Origin: an uncultured Paraprevotella sp.
GTDB lineage: Bacteria; Bacteroidota; Bacteroidia; Bacteroidales; Bacteroidaceae
Reading direction: 5' to 3'
DNA length: 64,000 nt
Assembly (NCBI GenBank): GCA_944321565.1
Contig: CALULT010000005.1
Coordinates: 20,592-84,591 of the forward strand
A program made the translations under genes and the position numbers. The notes under the pieces are model-generated. The model was given only the letters and a program-made list of their open reading frames with translations, had not been told where the DNA came from and searched no databases. Shown here piece after piece: positions 15,596 through 30,312 of this stretch (its first letter is position 1; every line of letters starts with the position of its first letter).

Positions 15596-16134
15596 CTCCC
15601 AAAAACAAAGACTTACGTCAATCGCCGATGAAGCATTCCGCGACATAGGCATGCGCAAAAATCAAACACGCTTTTAAAAAAATAATTTTCTTATATAGAA
15701 AAAATCAGAACTTGTGAAACACTTTGGCACTACCATCCTTTAACTTTGCCAACGAAAGTAGCTTGCGTGTGACTTTTCAGACCTTTTCTTTGCCGTTTCC
15801 AGAAATTTTTGCTAGCTTTGACACGATAAACCTCAAAAACGAAAGGAGACGAAAAGAGAAAAAAGACGATAGATTAGGCATACGGCATAACTTGCTGGCA
15901 ATTATTTGATTCGGTTAAATCTGGTAAATTCAACAAGGAATCAGAGAATAAAGGCCAAGCATGTTTGCACCCTCCAAGGGCGCAGGCTGCTTTCCTCTTA
16001 TTTTAGATTCCGGGCTTTACCAGAGCCTAACCGAAAAAATGAGTGGAGATGGGTGCTGTGCCCTTTCGTTTTTCGCACAGCCGGTAGGCCGAACACGACA
16101 GTTGAGGCAAAACGCAAGAAGACAATGAAGTGTG
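15596..16134 (+). other. Intergenic region and long leader before the FtsK-like gene
   Basis: No convincing gene lies in these 539 bases. Short open frames (for example 15724-15909 and 15906-16187) have no recognisable pattern or family. A strong promoter at 15789-15820 implies a leader of about 300 bases. It contains a possible hairpin near 16051-16083 (GGTGCTGTGC with GCACAGCC) but I see no known riboswitch. A second -7-like box, TAACTTTG, lies at 15741-15748. Confidence 0.5.
15789..15820 (+). promoter_or_regulatory. Consensus Bacteroidetes promoter of the accessory island operon
   Basis: TTTG (15789-15792), a 20-bp spacer, then TAGCTTTG (15813-15820) is an exact match to the TTTG-N19-21-TAnnTTTG primary sigma promoter of Bacteroides. 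It is the best promoter match in the window and points toward the FtsK-like gene and the DUF262 pair. Confidence 0.7.
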
Positions 16135-17537
16135 ATGGAACAGAAGAATGTGAATGGGAAATGCTTTCCTGCCGATTTATTGCCTGAATCGGAAAAAGCG
16201 GTTGCTACGTTCCTGCCGGAAGAAGAAGCAGAACGGAAAAAGGAACAGATAGCGGAAACCTTTGAATGGTTAGGAATGGATGTCGTTGCCTCCATAGATG
16301 TGCTTGCCGGACCATCCGCCAGCCTTTACGAAGTGACATTGAAACCCGGTACAAACTTGCGCAAGTTGCACGGGATGGAAGATGATTTTATGCAGGCTCT
16401 GCCGGTGAAAGGTTCGCGCATCGTGAAATCCATATCGTCCCCTGGCAAGAGGGCAATAGGCATTGAAATCAGCAATGACCACCCCTGCACGGTGGCTTTG
16501 AGGGACATCTTAGGAACTTCGGCCTTTGCAGAAGGCAACATGGAACTTCCGGTGGCCATCGGGCGGATCGTGACAGGCGAACCGTTGGCGGCCGACTTGG
16601 CAGCGATGCCTCATTTGCTGGTGGGCGGTGCCACCGGGCAAGGGAAGACTGCATTCCTCAATAGCTTGATTGTTTCCTTGCTTTATGCGAAGCGTCCTGA
16701 AGAACTTAAATTCGTATTGATGGATCCCAAGGGAGTGGAGTTTGATGTGTATAGAGATCTGGGTGATGCTTTTCTTGCCAAGCTGCCCGATGGTAAAAGT
16801 GCAGTGGTGACCGATGTCACTACTTCCGTTGATGTCCTTCGGTCGCTTTGCCAAGAGATGGACATCCGCTATGGCTTGCTAAAAGAAGTACAGGTGCGCA
16901 ATATCAAGGAATACAATGCTTTGCCTTCGCGCAAGCGTTTGCCCTTTATCGTAGTCGTAGTTGATGAACTCTGTGAGATTGTCCTGGCAGCAGGCAAAGA
17001 TGCGGAGCAGTCCGTCGTGCGCCTTGCGCAATTGGCACGTGCCGTTGGCATCCATTTGGTGATAGCCACCCAGCGGCCTACAGCCAACATCATCACCGGC
17101 ACTCTCAAAGCCAATTTCCCCACACGGGTGGCATTCCGTGTATCCTCCGTGATAGACTCGCGCACTATCCTTGACGAACCCGGTGCCCACTGCTTGATGG
17201 GCTGTGGCGACTTGTTGTTTTCCGCGAAGGGCGAAACCGTGCGTACGCAAGGCGCATGGGTGGATGTGCCGGAGATAACACGGGTGGTGCGCTACGTCCA
17301 TGCGCATGCAGGAGAGGCAGAAGCGTATGTTTTGCCGGAAAGTTGCCGATGAGGATGCGGATACGGAGGTGCAACGCAACCCGTTGCTTGAAGAAGCCTC
17401 CCGGTATGCAAAAAAGAGAGAAAGGCGTGGCTGTTGCCGACTTGCAAAAGAAGTTTGCCATCGGTTGCGTTCGGGCAAAGCGGTTGTTGGCGCGGTTGAA
17501 GTCGGCAGGCGTGGTAAAGAATGGAGAGAACAGTTAA
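16135..17537 (+). pseudogene. FtsK/SpoIIIE-like DNA translocase ATPase, frameshifted twice
   Basis: The first frame (to the stop at 17350-17352) encodes about 405 residues covering the alpha and ATPase domains of FtsK: GPSASLYEVTLKPG, Walker A GGATGQGKT (about residues 164-172), MDPKGVEFDVY, a Walker B-like FIVVVVDELCE, and IATQRPTANIITGTLKANF. The N-terminal membrane domain of a true FtsK is absent. The DNA-binding gamma winged helix is present downstream but out of frame: NPLLEEASRYAKK in the second frame, then VADLQKKFAIGC and KRLLARLKSAGVV in the third, ending at 17537. Removing one A from GGAAAG near 17340 and one A from the A6 run at 17410-17415 would restore one continuous protein. It may be decaying, a sequencing artefact, or work without the gamma domain. 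The DUF262 gene starts 32 bp later. Confidence 0.75.
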
Positions 17538-17569
17538 TATATTATTAAACACTTAAATCTATTTTTGAT

Positions 17570-19573
17570 ATGAAATTGAAGTTGGCCCATTTGGGCGATT
17601 TGATGGGAATGTATTTCAACATTCCTTATTACCAGCGAGGTTACAGATGGGAAGCCAAGCAAGTGCTGGACTTGCTGGACGACTTGTTTGAGTTCCAGCA
17701 AAGCGTCTCAAACAAAGGGCAGTTTTATTGCCTCCAGCCGTTGGTGGCTTGCCGTAACAGAAGCCTGTCGCAGGAAGGGAGAGCCGTTTTTGATGTCATC
17801 GACGGCCAGCAACGCCTGACAACCCTTTTCCTGTTAATGGAACATTTGGGGATGCCGGCCTTTGAATTGCGCTATGAACGTGCCGTGGGCAAGGGTGAAG
17901 ACCTTCGTGTGTGGGAGAACGGGCGGCTTGACTATGAGGGCTTGAAACAGCTTTCCGATGCGGACATGGCGGGCAACCCGGACTATTTCTACATGAAGCA
18001 GGCTATGGCATGCATAGAAGGTTGGTTCTTGGAAAAGGAGAAAAATTATCCACGTATTCGGAGGATGATGGAAGATGTCTTGCTTCGTCCGGACTATTTG
18101 AATGGTGACCTTCCTTTCTATGAAACGGATGAAGACCTGAACGGCAGCCAAGCCGACGTGCGTTTCATCTGGTATGAGGACGAACCGGCAGGCGGCAGTT
18201 CCATCGACACTTTCAAGCGTTTGAACTATGGGAAAACGCCATTGACGGCCACGGAACTCATCAAGGCATTGTTGTTCCAATGTGATGTGTATGCGCCGGA
18301 GAGGAGAGCCGAAATGAAACAAGTCGCCTTCCGCATGTCCACCGAATGGGATGCCATGGAGAAAGCATTGCAGGACGACTTCGTATGGTCCATGCTTTTC
18401 CCGCAAAAGTATGAGAAGCCTTCGCGCATCGACCTCGTGTTGTCCTTCGTGGCAAGGGAACTGAAGGAAAGACATTCTATTGAGGTCAAGGCATCCGAAA
18501 CGGACAAGGACTATGATTATCTCATCTTCAATAAGTATATAGAACAGGAGCGGCAAAAGAATCGTCCTTACGAGGAGGTGGTGAAAGAGCTTTGGGCGGA
18601 TGTGCAGGATACGTATGCCGTGTTCCGCAGTTGGTTTGAGGACCGGACGCTGTACCATCTCACGGGCTTGTATCTCACCTTGCTGCACCAAAACCTCAAA
18701 GAGCATCTGCAAACCCTGCGCACGTTGGTGGCTGAGTTTAAGGATAGGAACCGACAGGGCTATATCAATTGGTTGAAGAAAGAAAAGATAGGCGCATTGA
18801 TCCGGTTTGATGAACACAAGTTTGACGAATCGGAGGAGGCCTCCTTTGAAAACCTGTATTACGGGAAGTTCAGCAATGAGATTGGCCGGATATTGCTGGC
18901 CTACAACGTGGATGTGACGATGAAGAACGGGCAGGATAGGGCTTATTTCCCCTTCATGTTCTATCAGGCCACCACGCCGAGCTTGGAACACATCCATCCA
19001 CAGCACTTGCAGGATGCGGACATAGATTTCGTCACGCGCTGCCAATGGTATAAAGACAAGTGCGCGGAGCTAAGTAAAGAAGACTTGGAAGATGAAGAAC
19101 TGCGAGCAGCTGTGGACGGTTTGCGCGATGTGCTGCACCTGACAGCCGACGAAGAATCCGGCAGCAAGTCGGACGAGGCAAAGAAATCACTGAAGGAAAA
19201 AGAGGAGCAGTATCGAGCGAATGAATATGAATACCGCCAGTTGCTGAAGGTGATAGACCGGCATTTTGACGAGTTGGCCGGAATTGATGAAAAGGAACTC
19301 CACAGCATCAGCAACTTGGCACTGGTGGACAACCTCACCAACATCCGTTTGGGCAATGGGCTGCTCCACACCAAACGTGCCATCTTGCAACGCATTTCCG
19401 ATGAGTACGACCGCTCAAAGGGCGAACAGGGGGCTTGCGTGTACAAGGGGACTTGGAAGGTGTTCCGCAAGGAATATGCGCCGAAGGCCACGGACACGCG
19501 GTTCTGGACAAAGGAGGATCGAAAGAATTATTTGAACGACTTAAAACGAACATACGATGAATACACAAAATGA
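17570..19573 (+). CDS. DUF262-DUF1524 protein, probable modification-dependent nuclease
   Basis: A 667-residue protein. The N-terminal DUF262 domain has IPYYQRGYRWE (residues 18-28) and IDGQQRLTTLFLL (77-89), signatures of the ParB/Srx-like NTPase fold found in GmrS, SspE and BrxU. The C-terminal part carries a DUF1524 HNH-like site: LEHIHPQH (about 472-479) and, further on, NLALVDNLTNIRLGN (about 585-600). Known proteins with this pair cut foreign DNA carrying modified or phosphorothioated bases, so type IV restriction or phage defence is the likely role. Its last 17 bases overlap the next gene, which has a second DUF262 domain. Promoter and terminator positions suggest an operon with the upstream FtsK-like gene. 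The frame is intact from end to end. Confidence 0.85.
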   Translation: MKLKLAHLGDLMGMYFNIPYYQRGYRWEAKQVLDLLDDLFEFQQSVSNKGQFYCLQPLVACRNRSLSQEGRAVFDVIDGQQRLTTLFLLMEHLGMPAFELRYERAVGKGEDLRVWENGRLDYEGLKQLSDADMAGNPDYFYMKQAMACIEGWFLEKEKNYPRIRRMMEDVLLRPDYLNGDLPFYETDEDLNGSQADVRFIWYEDEPAGGSSIDTFKRLNYGKTPLTATELIKALLFQCDVYAPERRAEMKQVAFRMSTEWDAMEKALQDDFVWSMLFPQKYEKPSRIDLVLSFVARELKERHSIEVKASETDKDYDYLIFNKYIEQERQKNRPYEEVVKELWADVQDTYAVFRSWFEDRTLYHLTGLYLTLLHQNLKEHLQTLRTLVAEFKDRNRQGYINWLKKEKIGALIRFDEHKFDESEEASFENLYYGKFSNEIGRILLAYNVDVTMKNGQDRAYFPFMFYQATTPSLEHIHPQHLQDADIDFVTRCQWYKDKCAELSKEDLEDEELRAAVDGLRDVLHLTADEESGSKSDEAKKSLKEKEEQYRANEYEYRQLLKVIDRHFDELAGIDEKELHSISNLALVDNLTNIRLGNGLLHTKRAILQRISDEYDRSKGEQGACVYKGTWKVFRKEYAPKATDTRFWTKEDRKNYLNDLKRTYDEYTK

Positions 19574-22106
19574 CAACCTCGCAGTGGCTTTCTCTGAATT
19601 TATCGAGAAGCATGACATACAAGTGCCCGTCATCCAAAGGGACTATGTGCAGGGACAGGCTTTGACAAGCCAAGAAAAGGAAAAACGCGATGATTTTGCA
19701 AAGAAGCTGATGGATGCCTTGCTGCCCGATGGCGTGCCTTGCCACCTTGATTTCGTGTATGGCGGCAGGGAGAGCTTTGGGAGCGGCGAGACGATGCCCA
19801 AGGATACCCCGTTCCTTCCGCTGGACGGGCAGCAACGATTGACGACGTTGTTTCTGCTTCACTGGGCATTGTTGCAGAAGAATGCCCCGGAAGCAAGCGA
19901 GGAAACCGAAGCCGGGAAGGAAACTTTCAAGAAAAGGTTGGAGGCACTGGCCAAGTTCACATACAAGACCCGCATCAGTTCCGGGCGGTTCTGTCGGAAG
20001 CTCACCGAACTGCAAACCGACCCGAACCGCTCCTTGTCCGAGCAGATAAAAGAAAAGTATTGGTATGACCCCGACATGCAGGCCGACCCCACCGTGAAAG
20101 CCATGATGCAAATGCTGGAATGCATGGAAGAAATGCTGGGAAGCGAACCTTATGTGTCGCAGAAGGCAACGATGCTCGCCAACCTGTATGCGGATTCTCC
20201 CAAACGCATCACCTTCGATGTCTTGGACATGGACCAATATAACCTGACCGACGGCCTCTATGTGAAGATGAACGCCCGTGGCAAGGAACTGACTGCTTTT
20301 GAGAATTGGAAAGCCAGTTTCATTGATTTGATAGAGCGGAAGCACGGCGTTGAGACAAACGGCTCCTTCCAGGTTGCCCCTTCCGACATGTATGCCATGC
20401 AGGTATATTTGTCAGTCGTGGAGGCAAGAAAGAGAGAAGAAAAAGAGCGTTTCTCTTATTCGATAGAGCATGAGTGGAACGATGTGTTTTGGAAAATCGC
20501 TTACCAGGATTATATAGACAGAGCGAGAGCTGCCAATGGGGAACGGGTGCCGTCTCCCACGATAGACGATGCGTTCATGCATTTCTTCAACAACCTGACG
20601 CGTCTTTTCTTCTTCATCGCTCCCGAAAACCAGTCCTTCAATGCCGAACATTACGAGGCGGGGCTTTGGAGTACGGTGAGCAGTGTGTATGGAAACCATG
20701 AGGAATTTCGCTGGATGCTGTTCGACATGCTCGACACGCTGCATGAGATTGATACCGCAAACGGAAGCATCCGCCAGTTCTTTGAAAGCATCTTTGCGAA
20801 AGAAGCTGAAAGCGGGAAGGTATGCTTGTTGGATGGCAGCAACACAGACCTCTTTGAAACGGCTTGCAGTTCCGATAGTTTCTCGGCCAACCACATCTTG
20901 CTGTTTGCCATCTTGCTTTATTGCACGAAGTACAAGACATTTGCCATTAACAGGCATTTGCTGGATTACGCGCGCTTTTGCCGGAATTACTTGTACGAGC
21001 ATAATTACTTCGACACGTCCAATGTCACGGTTTCGCCCCAAATCAGGGTCAGCGAGATGGCACAATACCTCCGCTTCTTCGAAGCCTTGGCTGCGGAAGC
21101 CGACCCGTTGGTTTCCTTGGAAAAATTGGAACTGAAGGACGACTATGCGCTTCGCGAAAAGGCGAAGCTGGCCTATTACCAGCATCCCAAAGTGTTGGAA
21201 TTGGTTTGGAAGTTGGAGGATTTGCCTTACACGTATGGCAATTTGAGCGCATTTGCGTCCGTGTTGGAAATGTGTCTGGCGGACGAAACTTATTGCGCGA
21301 AGGTGTGGGATGCAGTGGAAGCCTTCATCCATGCCCCGGCCCTGACGAAGGTGCAACTGTTTGTGGCATTCGGTTATAAAGGAATCAAAGTGCGTAACTG
21401 CGCTTACGGCAAAGCGGTCTTTTTGGGCAGCGAGTACAAAGGAACGCCGCGTTGGATGGTGCATTTCCGCAAAAAGTATGATGCCGCTTCGCCGTTCAAT
21501 GCTTGGATGATGCGTTACGTGGATGCCTTCTCTCAGGAAAGTGACCTGGATGCCCTTGTGGCGCAACATATTCCTTCGGATAAACATTCAATGGCCTACT
21601 ATCTGTTGAAGTATCCCGATGTGTTGGCCGCACAGGTGTATTGGCGGAACAATCGTGACCATGCGCCATTCTATTTTGCCATGATGCGTCCGTGGGAGGA
21701 CATGGACATGATTGCCATCCACAGCTTTTCTAGCCGTCCGTTGAACAACGCCTATCAGGTTTGCCCGATGGCAAATGCCGTGATGCGGAAAATAGATAGG
21801 TACAAGAAGTATAAAAGTGCGAATCGTATGTGGTATTCCGGGCAGTTTGCCGACAAGCATGGGATTGCCATCAATGAATATCCCAACGGTTGGGACAAGA
21901 TTATCTTTGCGATGTGCTTTGGTGATTGGGAATGGCTGTTGCCGAAGGAAACTTTTGACCTGCTTCCGCCTTCCCTGCAGGAAGAATTGCATAGGGATGG
22001 CGACAACTATGTGTTGAAGCAGCCTGAAGGCAAAGACTTGGTGGAAACGGCCGTGGATTTCCTGAACAAAGTATTGGACGATTTCGAGCAACACGGCTTG
22101 CTTTAA
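19557..22106 (+). CDS. Second DUF262 protein, nuclease-less partner
   Basis: An 849-residue protein beginning in the last codons of the preceding gene. Its N-terminal DUF262 signature is diverged: PVIQRDYVQGQ (residues 23-33) lacks the usual aromatic/Trp, while LDGQQRLTTLFLLHW (89-103) is intact. No HIHP or HNH cluster was found in the remaining 700 residues, which look helical and contain many aromatic and acidic residues. It probably works with the 667-residue DUF262-DUF1524 protein, for instance as sensor or regulator, by analogy with two-component GmrS/GmrD and Ssp systems. That pairing is inferred only from the overlap and shared domain. A strong terminator follows 24 bases after the stop. 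Confidence 0.8.
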   Translation: MNTQNDNLAVAFSEFIEKHDIQVPVIQRDYVQGQALTSQEKEKRDDFAKKLMDALLPDGVPCHLDFVYGGRESFGSGETMPKDTPFLPLDGQQRLTTLFLLHWALLQKNAPEASEETEAGKETFKKRLEALAKFTYKTRISSGRFCRKLTELQTDPNRSLSEQIKEKYWYDPDMQADPTVKAMMQMLECMEEMLGSEPYVSQKATMLANLYADSPKRITFDVLDMDQYNLTDGLYVKMNARGKELTAFENWKASFIDLIERKHGVETNGSFQVAPSDMYAMQVYLSVVEARKREEKERFSYSIEHEWNDVFWKIAYQDYIDRARAANGERVPSPTIDDAFMHFFNNLTRLFFFIAPENQSFNAEHYEAGLWSTVSSVYGNHEEFRWMLFDMLDTLHEIDTANGSIRQFFESIFAKEAESGKVCLLDGSNTDLFETACSSDSFSANHILLFAILLYCTKYKTFAINRHLLDYARFCRNYLYEHNYFDTSNVTVSPQIRVSEMAQYLRFFEALAAEADPLVSLEKLELKDDYALREKAKLAYYQHPKVLELVWKLEDLPYTYGNLSAFASVLEMCLADETYCAKVWDAVEAFIHAPALTKVQLFVAFGYKGIKVRNCAYGKAVFLGSEYKGTPRWMVHFRKKYDAASPFNAWMMRYVDAFSQESDLDALVAQHIPSDKHSMAYYLLKYPDVLAAQVYWRNNRDHAPFYFAMMRPWEDMDMIAIHSFSSRPLNNAYQVCPMANAVMRKIDRYKKYKSANRMWYSGQFADKHGIAINEYPNGWDKIIFAMCFGDWEWLLPKETFDLLPPSLQEELHRDGDNYVLKQPEGKDLVETAVDFLNKVLDDFEQHGLL

Positions 22107-22130
22107 TAACCGTCTTGCTTTTATTCATTG

Positions 22131-22169
22131 CCTCCGCACGTCCTTTCATTGGAGCGTGCGGAGGTTTTT
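22131..22169 (+). terminator. Terminator of the DUF262 operon
   Basis: A perfect 10-bp stem (CCTCCGCACG 22131-22140 with CGTGCGGAGG 22155-22164) is followed by five T residues. Confidence 0.9.
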
Positions 22170-22228: not shown

Positions 22229-22442
22229 CTGCTTAAACCCAAATCATTAGACCGCACAAAGGGCATATTCATTTGAAAAGCAAAGCTCTTCAGGCATCTT
22301 ACTCGCTTTTGCCAGCAGATTGCTTCCTGCCCTGTTTTGACGTAGCCCGCTACGCCTTCAACAGGGCAGAAATCAATCTGCAAGACACAAGCGGGCAATC
22401 CGCCTAAAGTCTAATGCGATTTGGGCTAAACTTTGCGGCAGC
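22229..22442. repeat. Large imperfect palindrome, MITE-like or structured element
   Basis: The outer arms are related inverted repeats: the left has GCTGC..TTAAACCCAAATC.ATTAGAC (22229-22253) and the right, read in reverse complement, has TTTAGCCCAAATCGCATTAGAC (within 22409-22442). Nested inside are perfect pairs: GCAGATTG with CAATCTGC, CCCTGTT with AACAGGG, and GTAGC with GCTAC around a centre near 22344. The left half has roughly 40-50 extra bases. The element fills most of the 362-bp gap between the DUF262 operon terminator and the DnaB-like gene. The open frame 22174-22398 on the minus strand overlaps it and is not called as a gene. Confidence 0.6.
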
Positions 22443-22468
22443 AAACTTTACGGCGGGTGTTCTTATTG

Positions 22469-23337
22469 ATGGAGCAAAAACACGAATCATACCTGAAAGA
22501 TGGGAAGGTTGGAATATTTTCCTGTCCTGTGCAACGCTTTGGCATGCAGGCGAGCTACCTTTGCACCATAAACCAAGTTCAAGGAAGAAAAATGATGTGT
22601 TTATCTGGAAATGTGATTCCGACAGGTTTGCCGTCGTTGGACGAAATCATGAAAGGCTGGCATCTGTCCGACTTGATAGTCTTTAGTTCTTGCCGCAGTG
22701 GGAAGATGAGGGATTTGGCGATGACCATTGCCCGCAATTTGACGGTTGACTGCCGTGTCCCTGTTGCGTACTTCTCTTTGTGCATGCCGTCCGTCCGTTT
22801 TGCCAAGGGATTGGTTGCGATGGAATCCGGCCACACTTTATCCGAATTAGGGAACTTCGGGGGAAGAGACAAGGCGACCGACAAAAGGATTGATGCTGCC
22901 GTGGACAAGCTTAGGGATGCTCCTTTATATATAGATGACTCTCCCGGTTTGTCAATTCTTGATTTTAAGTCGAAAACAAAAGAATGGGCTGGGAAGCATG
23001 GGGTCAAACTGGCGATAATCGACTATGTGCAACTGATGCGCGGCCATGAAGACGCGGGAGACTGGGGACAGGAGTTGGCGGGAATCATAAAGGCCCTTAA
23101 GGAGGCTGCGTCAGGATTGGGCGTGGCCATCATCGCTTTGACACCCCGACGTGTTGTTCGGCGGAGGCGGAAAGAGGGGCCGAAAAATATGCAGACATCG
23201 TGCTTGCCTGTCGTCCAAGCGGCTCCCATAGGCCGGACAGCGTGGAGTGGGTGGCCGAAATAGCTGTGGTGAAGAACAACAGGGACAGGTTTGGTGATTG
23301 TGATGTAGTATTAAAAAGGTGGGAGGATAGATTGTGA
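22469..23337 (+). pseudogene. DnaB-like RecA-fold ATPase fragment, frameshifted
   Basis: About 290 residues resembling the C-terminal helicase domain of DnaB, with no N-terminal domain. Matches in order: IPTGLPSLDEIMKGW, a degenerate Walker A SSCRSGKMRDL where DnaB has the GKT/S loop, VAYFSLCMPS, APLYIDDSPGLS, LAIIDYVQLMRG (Walker B) and a helicase motif IIAL. After IIAL near 23142 the frame is lost; the continuation KYADIVLACRPSG...IAVVKNNRDRFGD, which matches the DnaB C-terminus, is in the -1 frame and ends at 23337. One missing base near the CCCC at 23144-23147 explains it. In the first frame the protein would end at 23263 with a basic, unrelated tail. Both this gene and the FtsK-like gene start MEQK. 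The start at 22469 is tentative. Confidence 0.65.
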
Positions 23338-23576: not shown

Positions 23577-23584
23577 TCTTTTGG

Positions 23585-23656
23585 TTGGACTACCTGGATT
23601 CGAACCAAGACAAACAGAACCAAAACCTGTTGTGCTGCCATTACACCATAGTCCAA
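23585..23656 (-). tRNA. tRNA-Gln (anticodon TTG)
   Basis: A 72-base cloverleaf on the minus strand. The acceptor arms TTGGACT and AGTCCAA pair fully; the D arm includes GGTGTAATGGCAGC; the anticodon loop TTTTGGT gives TTG for glutamine; the T arm contains GGTTCGAATCC. CCA is not encoded. The 3' end faces the accessory island to the left, the usual arrangement when an element integrates into a tRNA gene. Confidence 0.93.
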
Positions 23657-30173: not shown

Positions 30174-30312
30174 TTTTTTTGTAATTTGAATAAATGATAA
30201 GTTGAAAATGGGGTTTCATTGGGAAGGTATGCGTGCAATGCGGACATTGCCTTTAGCATTTTTTACTGTGGTTGCAAGCCGCCCAAATCTATCCACATTT
30301 GTATTTCGTCTG

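What the first reader, a model, noticed from the sequence alone, without database searches (positions are those of the whole stretch)
15789..22169. Candidate defence operon: FtsK-like ATPase, DUF262-DUF1524 nuclease and second DUF262 protein
A perfect Bacteroidetes promoter leads into an FtsK-like ATPase gene, then (32 bp on) a 667-residue DUF262-DUF1524 protein with QRGYRW, DGQQR and HIHP motifs, then a 17-base overlapping 849-residue protein with a second, diverged DUF262 domain and no nuclease motif, then a strong terminator. Proteins with DUF262 and DUF1524 include GmrSD, SspE and BrxU, which act against modified or phosphorothioated DNA. A split into nuclease plus nuclease-less DUF262 partner, coupled with a DNA translocase-type ATPase, is not a configuration I can match to a named system.
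Basis: partly seen in the sequence, partly recalled or inferred. Interest (0 to 1): 0.75.

Follow-up and report, generated by a model that had tools for sequence, protein, structure and literature searches.

The report
Two-protein restriction operon behind structured RNA
An unnamed bacterium, probably a Bacteroides relative, carries a two-gene operon that looks like a phage-defence system described in 2025, one that cuts phage DNA with chemically altered bases; it is preceded by a strongly structured RNA with no match in the Rfam catalogue, which may be the newer part of the story.

Summary
The sequence observation is largely right. Genes A (17570-19573) and B (19557-22106) are intact and adjacent, each with an N-terminal DUF262 (GmrSD_N) domain; A also has an invariant H...N...N nuclease motif. 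Every B homologue checked has A just upstream: 13 of 13 genomic loci, 5 of 5 closer contigs, 15 of 15 plasmid records, 1 of 1 viral contig. The FtsK-like gene is not core: it is frameshifted here and absent from most pair loci. Unexpected: between promoter and FtsK lies a rod-shaped RNA (15894-16050) with strong covariation and no Rfam match; its family usually has a promoter box upstream and a T tract downstream. It precedes the pair in 5 of 5 close loci with visible upstream DNA (decayed in one) and in 0 of 17 distant ones. The other copy found in the host precedes a PvuRts1I-like modified-DNA endonuclease, but most copies in other genomes precede unrelated genes. Function is inferred throughout.

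The parts
15789..15820 (+). Bacteroidetes-type promoter (TTTG / TAnnTTTG; consensus recalled)
   Evidence: exact pattern match, 4 in window vs 0.69 expected
15894..16050 (+). structured leader RNA, rod-like hairpin (match to model R1)
   Evidence: fold z -4.4 for 15875-16080, -3.8 for 15822-16131; 138.7 bits (this copy is one of the 12 rows of the model, so its score is partly by construction); covariation on a MAFFT alignment of 12 copies 0.305 vs 0.175, 0 of 500 shuffles; no Rfam match at E<=1
16051..16063 (+). terminator-like hairpin with T tract right after the RNA
   Evidence: pattern scan; such sites are no more frequent in the region than in shuffles (6 vs mean 8.2)
16132..17352 (+). 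FtsK-like DNA translocase, alpha + motor domains, frameshifted
   Evidence: PF01580 E 5e-48, PF17854 E 6e-12; longer ORF with all domains in L002/L003
17256..17537 (+). FtsK gamma domain in a different frame
   Evidence: PF09397 E 4e-5, below gathering score
17570..19573 (+). gene A: DUF262 + His-Me (HNH) nuclease motif, GrwA-like
   Evidence: dN/dS 0.13-0.14 to L002/L003
19557..22106 (+). gene B: DUF262 + long C-terminal part of unknown fold, GrwB-like
   Evidence: dN/dS 0.15-0.16 to L002/L003
22131..22169 (+). terminator hairpin after B
   Evidence: read by eye; similar hairpin in L002 and L003; not listed by the scan

Best explanation
A and B form a two-protein, modification-dependent (type IV) restriction system that works like GrwAB. 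Both DUF262 domains bind and hydrolyse NTP and act in sensing altered bases in incoming phage DNA; B is an obligatory partner whose long C-terminal part adds recognition or assembly. Once licensed, the His-Me nuclease of A cuts the foreign DNA while the host's unmodified DNA is spared. Transcription probably starts at the 15789-15820 promoter and passes through a structured RNA that may limit or time expression of a nuclease that is toxic when over-produced. The FtsK-like gene in between is a decayed accessory and is not needed here. Shown here: gene order, homology, motifs, purifying selection, conserved A-B pairing, RNA structure by covariation. Inferred: transcription, complex formation, modified-DNA target, cutting, role of the RNA.
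For: Every B homologue checked has A directly upstream in the same direction: 13 of 13 genomic loci (12 genomes), 5 of 5 contigs L002-L006, 15 of 15 plasmid records from six phyla (one with the matched parts 1.6 kb apart), 1 of 1 viral contig. In 22 of 22 loci with both ORFs called, the two genes overlap or lie at most 12 bases apart, and the 17-base overlap is kept in 6 of 6 close loci. Q22R23, D78GQQR82, F215xxxN219, H474, N582, N591 are invariant in 18 of 18 aligned A homologues; QR, DGQQR and [YF]xxxN in 19 of 19 aligned B homologues. GrwA's mutated residues R81, H431, N521, N530 fall within the ranges seen (R 73-115, H 402-499, N-N spacing always 9) and GrwB R86 within 72-125. dN/dS 0.13-0.16 for A and B between window and L002/L003 (0.19-0.20 between L002 and L003), against 0.27-0.30 for FtsK. 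Neighbours of pairs include WYL regulators (L022, L023, L112, L115), a Qat gene and, by eye only, type I RM-like genes (L116, L118, L119, L120). In print, GrwAB needs both genes and targets Tevenvirinae and Queuovirinae.
Against: No functional data. No GrwAB sequence was available, so membership rests on architecture and motif spacing. Pfam does not call DUF1524 in A. AlphaFold models were poor (mean pLDDT 55 and 43, six-row alignments), so the nuclease fold and the nature of B's C-terminus are unconfirmed. The best PADLOC matches cover only the DUF262 part, and no full-length match to a named system was found in PADLOC or NCBIfam.
Confidence: 0.72

Rival explanations
1. A three-part system in which the FtsK-like translocase delivers A-B to invading DNA (a 'HerA/FtsK capture' system), with FtsK decayed only in this strain.
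For: A short FtsK with alpha, motor and gamma domains lies upstream of the pair in L002 and L003, and an FtsK-like gene lies downstream of the pair in L111 and L181. The FtsK motor matches PADLOC SspH (E 1e-50) and mad8 (E 7e-28). FtsK capture is a described theme in anti-invader systems (PMC10853773, passages).
Against: FtsK adjoins the pair in 5 of 23 loci, two lineages. It is frameshifted in the window while A and B are intact, and evolves with a higher dN/dS. It also occurs with glycosylase-like and FtsZ-like genes without the pair (L183; L040 decayed; L180 cut by a contig end).
Confidence: 0.1
2. A works alone as an ordinary GmrSD/BrxU-type enzyme and B is a regulator or dispensable.
For: A has the complete GmrSD-type architecture; BrxU, SspE and Eco94GmrSD are described as single proteins. 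One of 16 plasmid A hits (Prevotella, 33% coverage) has no B hit.
Against: 15 of 16 plasmid A hits have B next to them, and B has A in 34 of 34 loci found through B. The genes overlap or nearly touch. The three published two-gene relatives need both genes.
Confidence: 0.08
3. The target is not modified phage bases but phosphorothioate or another signal (SspE-like), or the pair acts by toxicity (abortive infection).
For: Best solved-structure matches of A are SspE chains, over residues 13-155 only (E 7e-7). Over-expression of a two-gene relative is grossly toxic (PMC12373910, passages). GrwAB-protected cultures later showed moderate-to-severe lysis.
Against: I saw no dnd/ssp genes among the ORFs beside the window's pair (by eye, not searched systematically). 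[quoted passage not shown]
Confidence: 0.06
4. The locus is inactive cargo of a decaying island.
For: FtsK is frameshifted and a truncated DnaB-like fragment lies downstream. The region lies next to a tRNA-Gln gene whose other side holds other genes in related genomes.
Against: A and B are intact full-length ORFs with dN/dS 0.13-0.16 against L002 and L003.
Confidence: 0.04

Closest known systems
[quoted passage not shown] PMC12137116: section 11 and passages seen; PMC12409362: passages seen)
   Same: Two genes, A first (DUF262 + DUF1524-type nuclease), B second (DUF262 + long unknown C-terminus); QR, DGQQR, FxxxN; H-N-N with N-N spacing 9
TgvAB (PMC11411939: section 9 and passages seen)
   Same: Two DUF262 proteins, one with the nuclease; both needed
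   Different: Nuclease protein is TgvB, inside a type I RM operon; partner TgvA described as distinct from GrwB
GmrS1/GmrSD2 of ECOR17 (PMC12373910: section 10 and passages seen)
   Same: Two-gene GmrS-type system, both needed, toxic when induced
   Different: Nuclease is in the gene named second; sequence relation not tested
Single-chain GmrSD, BrxU, SspE
   Same: DUF262 N-terminus, DGQQR, His-Me nuclease
   Different: One protein; best PADLOC SspE match covers residues 13-93 of A only
HerA/FtsK capture systems (DndH and others; PMC10853773: passages seen)
   Same: FtsK alpha + motor related to cellular FtsK, near defence genes
   Different: FtsK is a separate gene here, broken, and not linked to the pair in most loci

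Membership tests
GrwAB | two adjacent genes, nuclease-bearing gene first | tested here: met
GrwAB | DUF262 with QR, DGQQR, FxxxN in A | tested here: met
   18 of 18 aligned homologues
GrwAB | DUF262 with QR, DGQQR, FxxxN in B | tested here: met
   QR and DGQQR in 19 of 19; third motif YxxxN in 18 of 19 (window included) and FxxxN in 1 of 19, so met with a conservative change
GrwAB | His-Me nuclease H...N...N in the C-terminal part of A | tested here: met
   H474, N582, N591 invariant in 18 of 18, N-N spacing 9 as in GrwA
GrwAB | DUF1524 / beta-beta-alpha fold | tested here: inconclusive
   no Pfam DUF1524 hit at E<=1 in the window's A or at E<=0.01 in L003 A; the structure model was too poor to judge the fold
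GrwAB | sequence homology to V. cholerae GrwA and GrwB | not testable with these tools
   no GrwAB record was at hand; GrwA residue numbers fit the family ranges
GrwAB | both genes needed; restriction of modified phages | not testable with these tools
   wet-lab
TgvAB | lies inside a type I RM operon | tested here: not met
   no RM domain in the neighbouring ORFs scanned (crp-like, FtsK, DnaB fragment); other neighbours judged by eye
SspE (phosphorothioate-dependent) | similarity over the whole protein | tested here: not met
   match only over the N-terminal part
HerA/FtsK capture system | intact FtsK ATPase in the operon | tested here: not met
   frameshifted in the window; longer ORF with all domains in L002, L003

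The most novel reading that the evidence does not exclude
The operon is led by a member of an undescribed family of discrete, promoter- and T-tract-bounded rod RNAs of Bacteroidales. It recurs in front of machinery against modified DNA (the GrwAB-like pair, PvuRts1I-like endonucleases) and of a module of short FtsK, glycosylase-like and mini-FtsZ proteins. In these loci the RNA serves as switch or component of defence against phages with modified DNA.
Probability: 0.25. Interest if true: 0.8.

Novelty: new member of a known kind. Interest (0 to 1): 0.5.

Why it matters
[quoted passage not shown] The leader RNA offers a testable control point for a class of nuclease that is toxic when over-produced; the same RNA before many unrelated genes suggests a broad Bacteroidales RNA family that I did not find in Rfam 15. 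The FtsK / glycosylase-like / mini-FtsZ module is a concrete lead for a further defence system.

Tried and rejected
FtsK as part of a fixed three-gene system: rejected because it is broken here and missing at most pair loci. RNA as a specific mark of type IV restriction: rejected as a general rule; of 87 downstream ORFs scanned only 4 were PvuRts1I-like and the others were mixed: LRR, zinc-finger, FtsK, SusD-like and more (71 families, of which the call shows 25). Those 87 come from 99 listed RNA hits (scores 52 bits and up, a part of the genome hits; L160 repeats L089), of which 88 had a downstream ORF by my simple rule. RNA as a known Rfam family: no match at E<=1 for the window copy, which covers the Bacteroidetes 6S family RF01685 too; in ten other loci only sub-threshold matches overlapped the RNA. 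A search for RF01685 itself found nothing over the cut-off in 41 genomes, nor in the 14 control genomes, so it says little. RNA as a coding leader ORF: by eye the L002/L003 sequence has a short open frame that shifts in the window; covariation explains the conservation better. RNA model hits in 145 of 301 and 72 of 295 genomes are upper figures: a long hairpin alone gives up to 30 bits (opposite strands), and 70 of the 99 hits carry the strict core motif. Structure prediction gave low confidence for A and B, so no fold search was run. No phage record gave a B match at E 1e-5. An att-like repeat of the tRNA-Gln end was sought in the window and not found. Paper searches on an RNA word (20 papers, 5 listed, all on animal or human cells) and on structured RNAs did not show this RNA.

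Rows left out: alignment A10 had 18 of the 23 pair loci (left out L002, L003, L005 as near-duplicates, L111 because its A ORF was not picked, L181 found later). A11 had 19 of 23 (left out L002, L003, L005, L181). R1 was built from 12 of the 13 RNA rows then known (L039 left out, its 5' part differs). One search was given 53 sources, a part of those held. The three annotated plasmid loci are 3 of 15.

Full report
Observation. Pfam finds GmrSD_N (DUF262) in A (E 3.6e-26) and B (E 1.3e-16) and, upstream, the FtsK alpha and motor domains. The FtsK gene is broken: the 406-aa ORF stops at 17352 and the gamma domain follows in another frame; L002 and L003 have 470- and 464-aa ORFs with all three domains. 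The promoter at 15789-15820 stands out as a pattern (4 in 64 kb, 0.69 expected). A 10-bp stem with a T run follows B (by eye), with a similar hairpin in L002 and L003.

Host. Two genomes of its family (G359, G383) have contigs of the same length as L002 (uncultured Bacteroides) and L003 (uncultured Bacteroidaceae) and the same RNA and genes, so I take the family as Bacteroidaceae and the order as Bacteroidales; this is inference.

The pair is a unit. B homologues were found in 6 of 61 relatives and 8 of 296 genomes of the phylum sample, own genome counted in both. In all 13 other genomic loci so found (12 genomes; L109-L121), in 5 of 5 contigs L002-L006, in 15 of 15 plasmid records with B and in the one viral contig, a homologue of A lies directly upstream of B in the same direction; in one plasmid the matched parts are 1.6 kb apart. 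For L111 the A homologue comes from the tblastn. Where both ORFs are called (22 of 22 loci), they overlap by up to 35 bases or lie at most 12 apart. In the reverse direction, 15 of 16 plasmid records with an A match also have B; the exception is a Prevotella record with 33% coverage. The plasmid hosts belong to Bacteroidota, Actinomycetota, Pseudomonadota, Campylobacterota, Bacillota and Spirochaetota (genera, phyla partly from recall). A and B are under purifying selection: dN/dS 0.13-0.16 between the window and L002/L003 and 0.19-0.20 between L002 and L003, FtsK 0.27-0.30.

Motifs. Over 18 aligned A homologues QR, DGQQR, FxxxN, H474, N582 and N591 are invariant; over 19 aligned B homologues QR and DGQQR are invariant and the third motif is YxxxN in 18 and FxxxN in 1. 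The N-N spacing is 9 in 18 of 18. The GrwAB paper reports loss of activity for GrwA R81A, H431A, N521A, N530A and GrwB R86A (PMC12137116, section 11); these numbers lie inside the ranges. Pfam does not call DUF1524 in A, a solved-structure search finds SspE only over residues 13-155, and AlphaFold models from six-row alignments were poor (mean pLDDT 55 and 43). The nuclease is therefore supported by motif, not by fold.

Known system. GrwAB has DUF262 + His-Me nuclease first and a DUF262 protein with a long unknown C-terminus second. Both genes are needed; it restricts Tevenvirinae, Queuovirinae and some Markadamsvirinae; phage escapers map to dpdA; homologues are in about 1% of genomes; protected cultures showed no abortive-infection pattern but lysed later (a review, PMC12409362, agrees in the passages seen). 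TgvAB and the ECOR17 pair are two-gene relatives with the nuclease in the B or second-named protein. I therefore file the window pair as a probable member of the GrwAB kind. The open point is direct homology to GrwA/GrwB, which I could not compute.

FtsK. The short FtsK is not the housekeeping copy (52% identical). It adjoins the pair in window, L002, L003 (one lineage) and, downstream, in L111 and L181 (another): 5 of 23 pair loci examined, or 4 of 22 without L181, which was found through an FtsK-linked query; L006 is cut at a contig end and L109 and L114 are short contigs. Elsewhere it sits with a glycosylase-like gene of about 230 aa (the name is recalled motif resemblance; no profile or structure match) and a mini-FtsZ holding only the GTPase part (TIGR00065 positions about 16-208 of 353). 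L183 has all three and no pair; L040 is decayed; L180 is cut. L115 has mini-FtsZ upstream of the pair. L003 has a different glycosylase-like protein (17% identical to that of L111), related to one in L172. The L111-type gene was found in 6 of 301 family genomes and 3 of 295 order genomes, one of these weak. FtsK capture by anti-invader systems has been described (PMC10853773, passages); a search for FtsZ-like with FtsK in defence gave 16 papers, 12 listed, none on such a module by title. In the window only the broken FtsK is left.

The leader RNA. Between promoter and FtsK a stretch of about 210 bases is 95% identical to L002 and L003, where FtsK is 80-81% identical as protein. It folds as a long rod (z -4.4; four homologues -5.3 to -9.1, though one of them, L043, takes another lowest-energy fold in that longer stretch). 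On a MAFFT alignment of 12 copies, 86.4% of cells pair and the covariation score is 0.305 against 0.175 in shuffles (0 of 500) and at most 0.123 when slid; helix 3 pairs in only 70.8% of cells but changes on both sides in six of six pairs (the structure came from one of the rows, which favours it in the slid control). On 54 matches fitted to the model the score is 0.577 against 0.193 (this alignment leans to the model). Rfam 15 gives no match to the window copy at E<=1, and in the whole window only a tRNA and a SAM-II riboswitch reach gathering score. In 53 copies examined, TAnnTTTG occurs within 120 bases upstream in 37 (base-shuffled mean 3.7, max 12) and a T tract within 60 bases downstream in 49 (mean 12, max 22). 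This suggests a discrete transcript with its own promoter and terminator.

Where the RNA sits. It lies upstream of the pair in window, L002, L003, L005 (46 bits, clear core, z -6.4) and L004 (80 bits, but helix 2 decayed and z -0.55): 5 of 5 close loci with visible upstream DNA, two of them without FtsK. It is absent upstream of the pair in 17 of 17 more distant loci (L109-L121, L022-L024, L181); L121 has a 41-bit hit several kb downstream of B. So it is a lineage trait, not part of the core. In the host two matches were found; the other (G000:C36) precedes a PvuRts1I-like endonuclease (Pfam 9e-35; PADLOC mREase_II 5e-91). It also lies 0.5 kb and about 2 kb upstream of glycosylase-like genes in L187 and L188, with one and two genes between, and upstream of the L172 one. 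Yet most RNA copies precede other genes: of 87 downstream ORFs, 4 PvuRts1I-like, 4 LRR, 4 zinc-finger, 3 FtsK alpha, 3 DUF6140, 2 N6-methylase and so on. The RNA is thus a general Bacteroidales leader or small RNA, used also by defence-like loci. My searches for it in print were few (Weinberg 2010, passages); a large candidate set (PMC8040213, search listing only) may contain it.

Verdict. The finding as given is a probable new Bacteroidales member of the GrwAB kind with a broken FtsK neighbour. The RNA and the FtsK / glycosylase-like / mini-FtsZ module are the less expected results and deserve their own follow-up.

Noticed in passing
window 15894-16050 (+); model R1; L040-L161: Structured rod RNA family of Bacteroidales with promoter box upstream and T tract downstream, up to 10 model hits in one genome (G765), no Rfam match; precedes diverse genes.
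   Followed up: partly
L183:7304-12257, L181:7128-9725, L111:11545-14483, L040:6541-8816, L180: Module of short FtsK, glycosylase-like (~230 aa) and mini-FtsZ GTPase, with or without the DUF262 pair; a WYL-like regulator ORF (by eye) lies beside it in L183.
   Followed up: partly
G000:C36:23779-23935 (L041:9780-9936, -): Second RNA copy of the host, directly upstream of a PvuRts1I-like modified-DNA endonuclease.
   Followed up: partly
window 22433-23263 (+), L003:10655-11296: DnaB C-terminal-domain fragment without N-domain downstream of the pair; Walker A looks degenerate in the window (by eye; motif recalled).
   Followed up: partly
window 23582-23655 (-): tRNA-Gln next to tyrS marks a variable site: the tyrS and tRNA side matches in 10 of 10 genus stretches; the window's crp, FtsK, A, B and DnaB are not found beyond it (two of the ten stretches end at the tRNA because the contig ends).
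   Followed up: partly
L090:1696-1761, L091:1375-1443: DUF805 RNA (RF03081) lies 50-60 bases downstream of the rod RNA.
   Followed up: no
L043, L046, L172, L112, L115, L022, L023: WYL-domain regulators lie next to the RNA or the pair in several loci (L046 and L172 by ORF resemblance only).
   Followed up: no
14 of 99 listed RNA hits: Lie within 500 bases of a contig end, perhaps because copies act as repeats in assembly.
   Followed up: no
window 30243-30302 (-): SAM-II riboswitch (RF01726, 54.5 bits).
   Followed up: no
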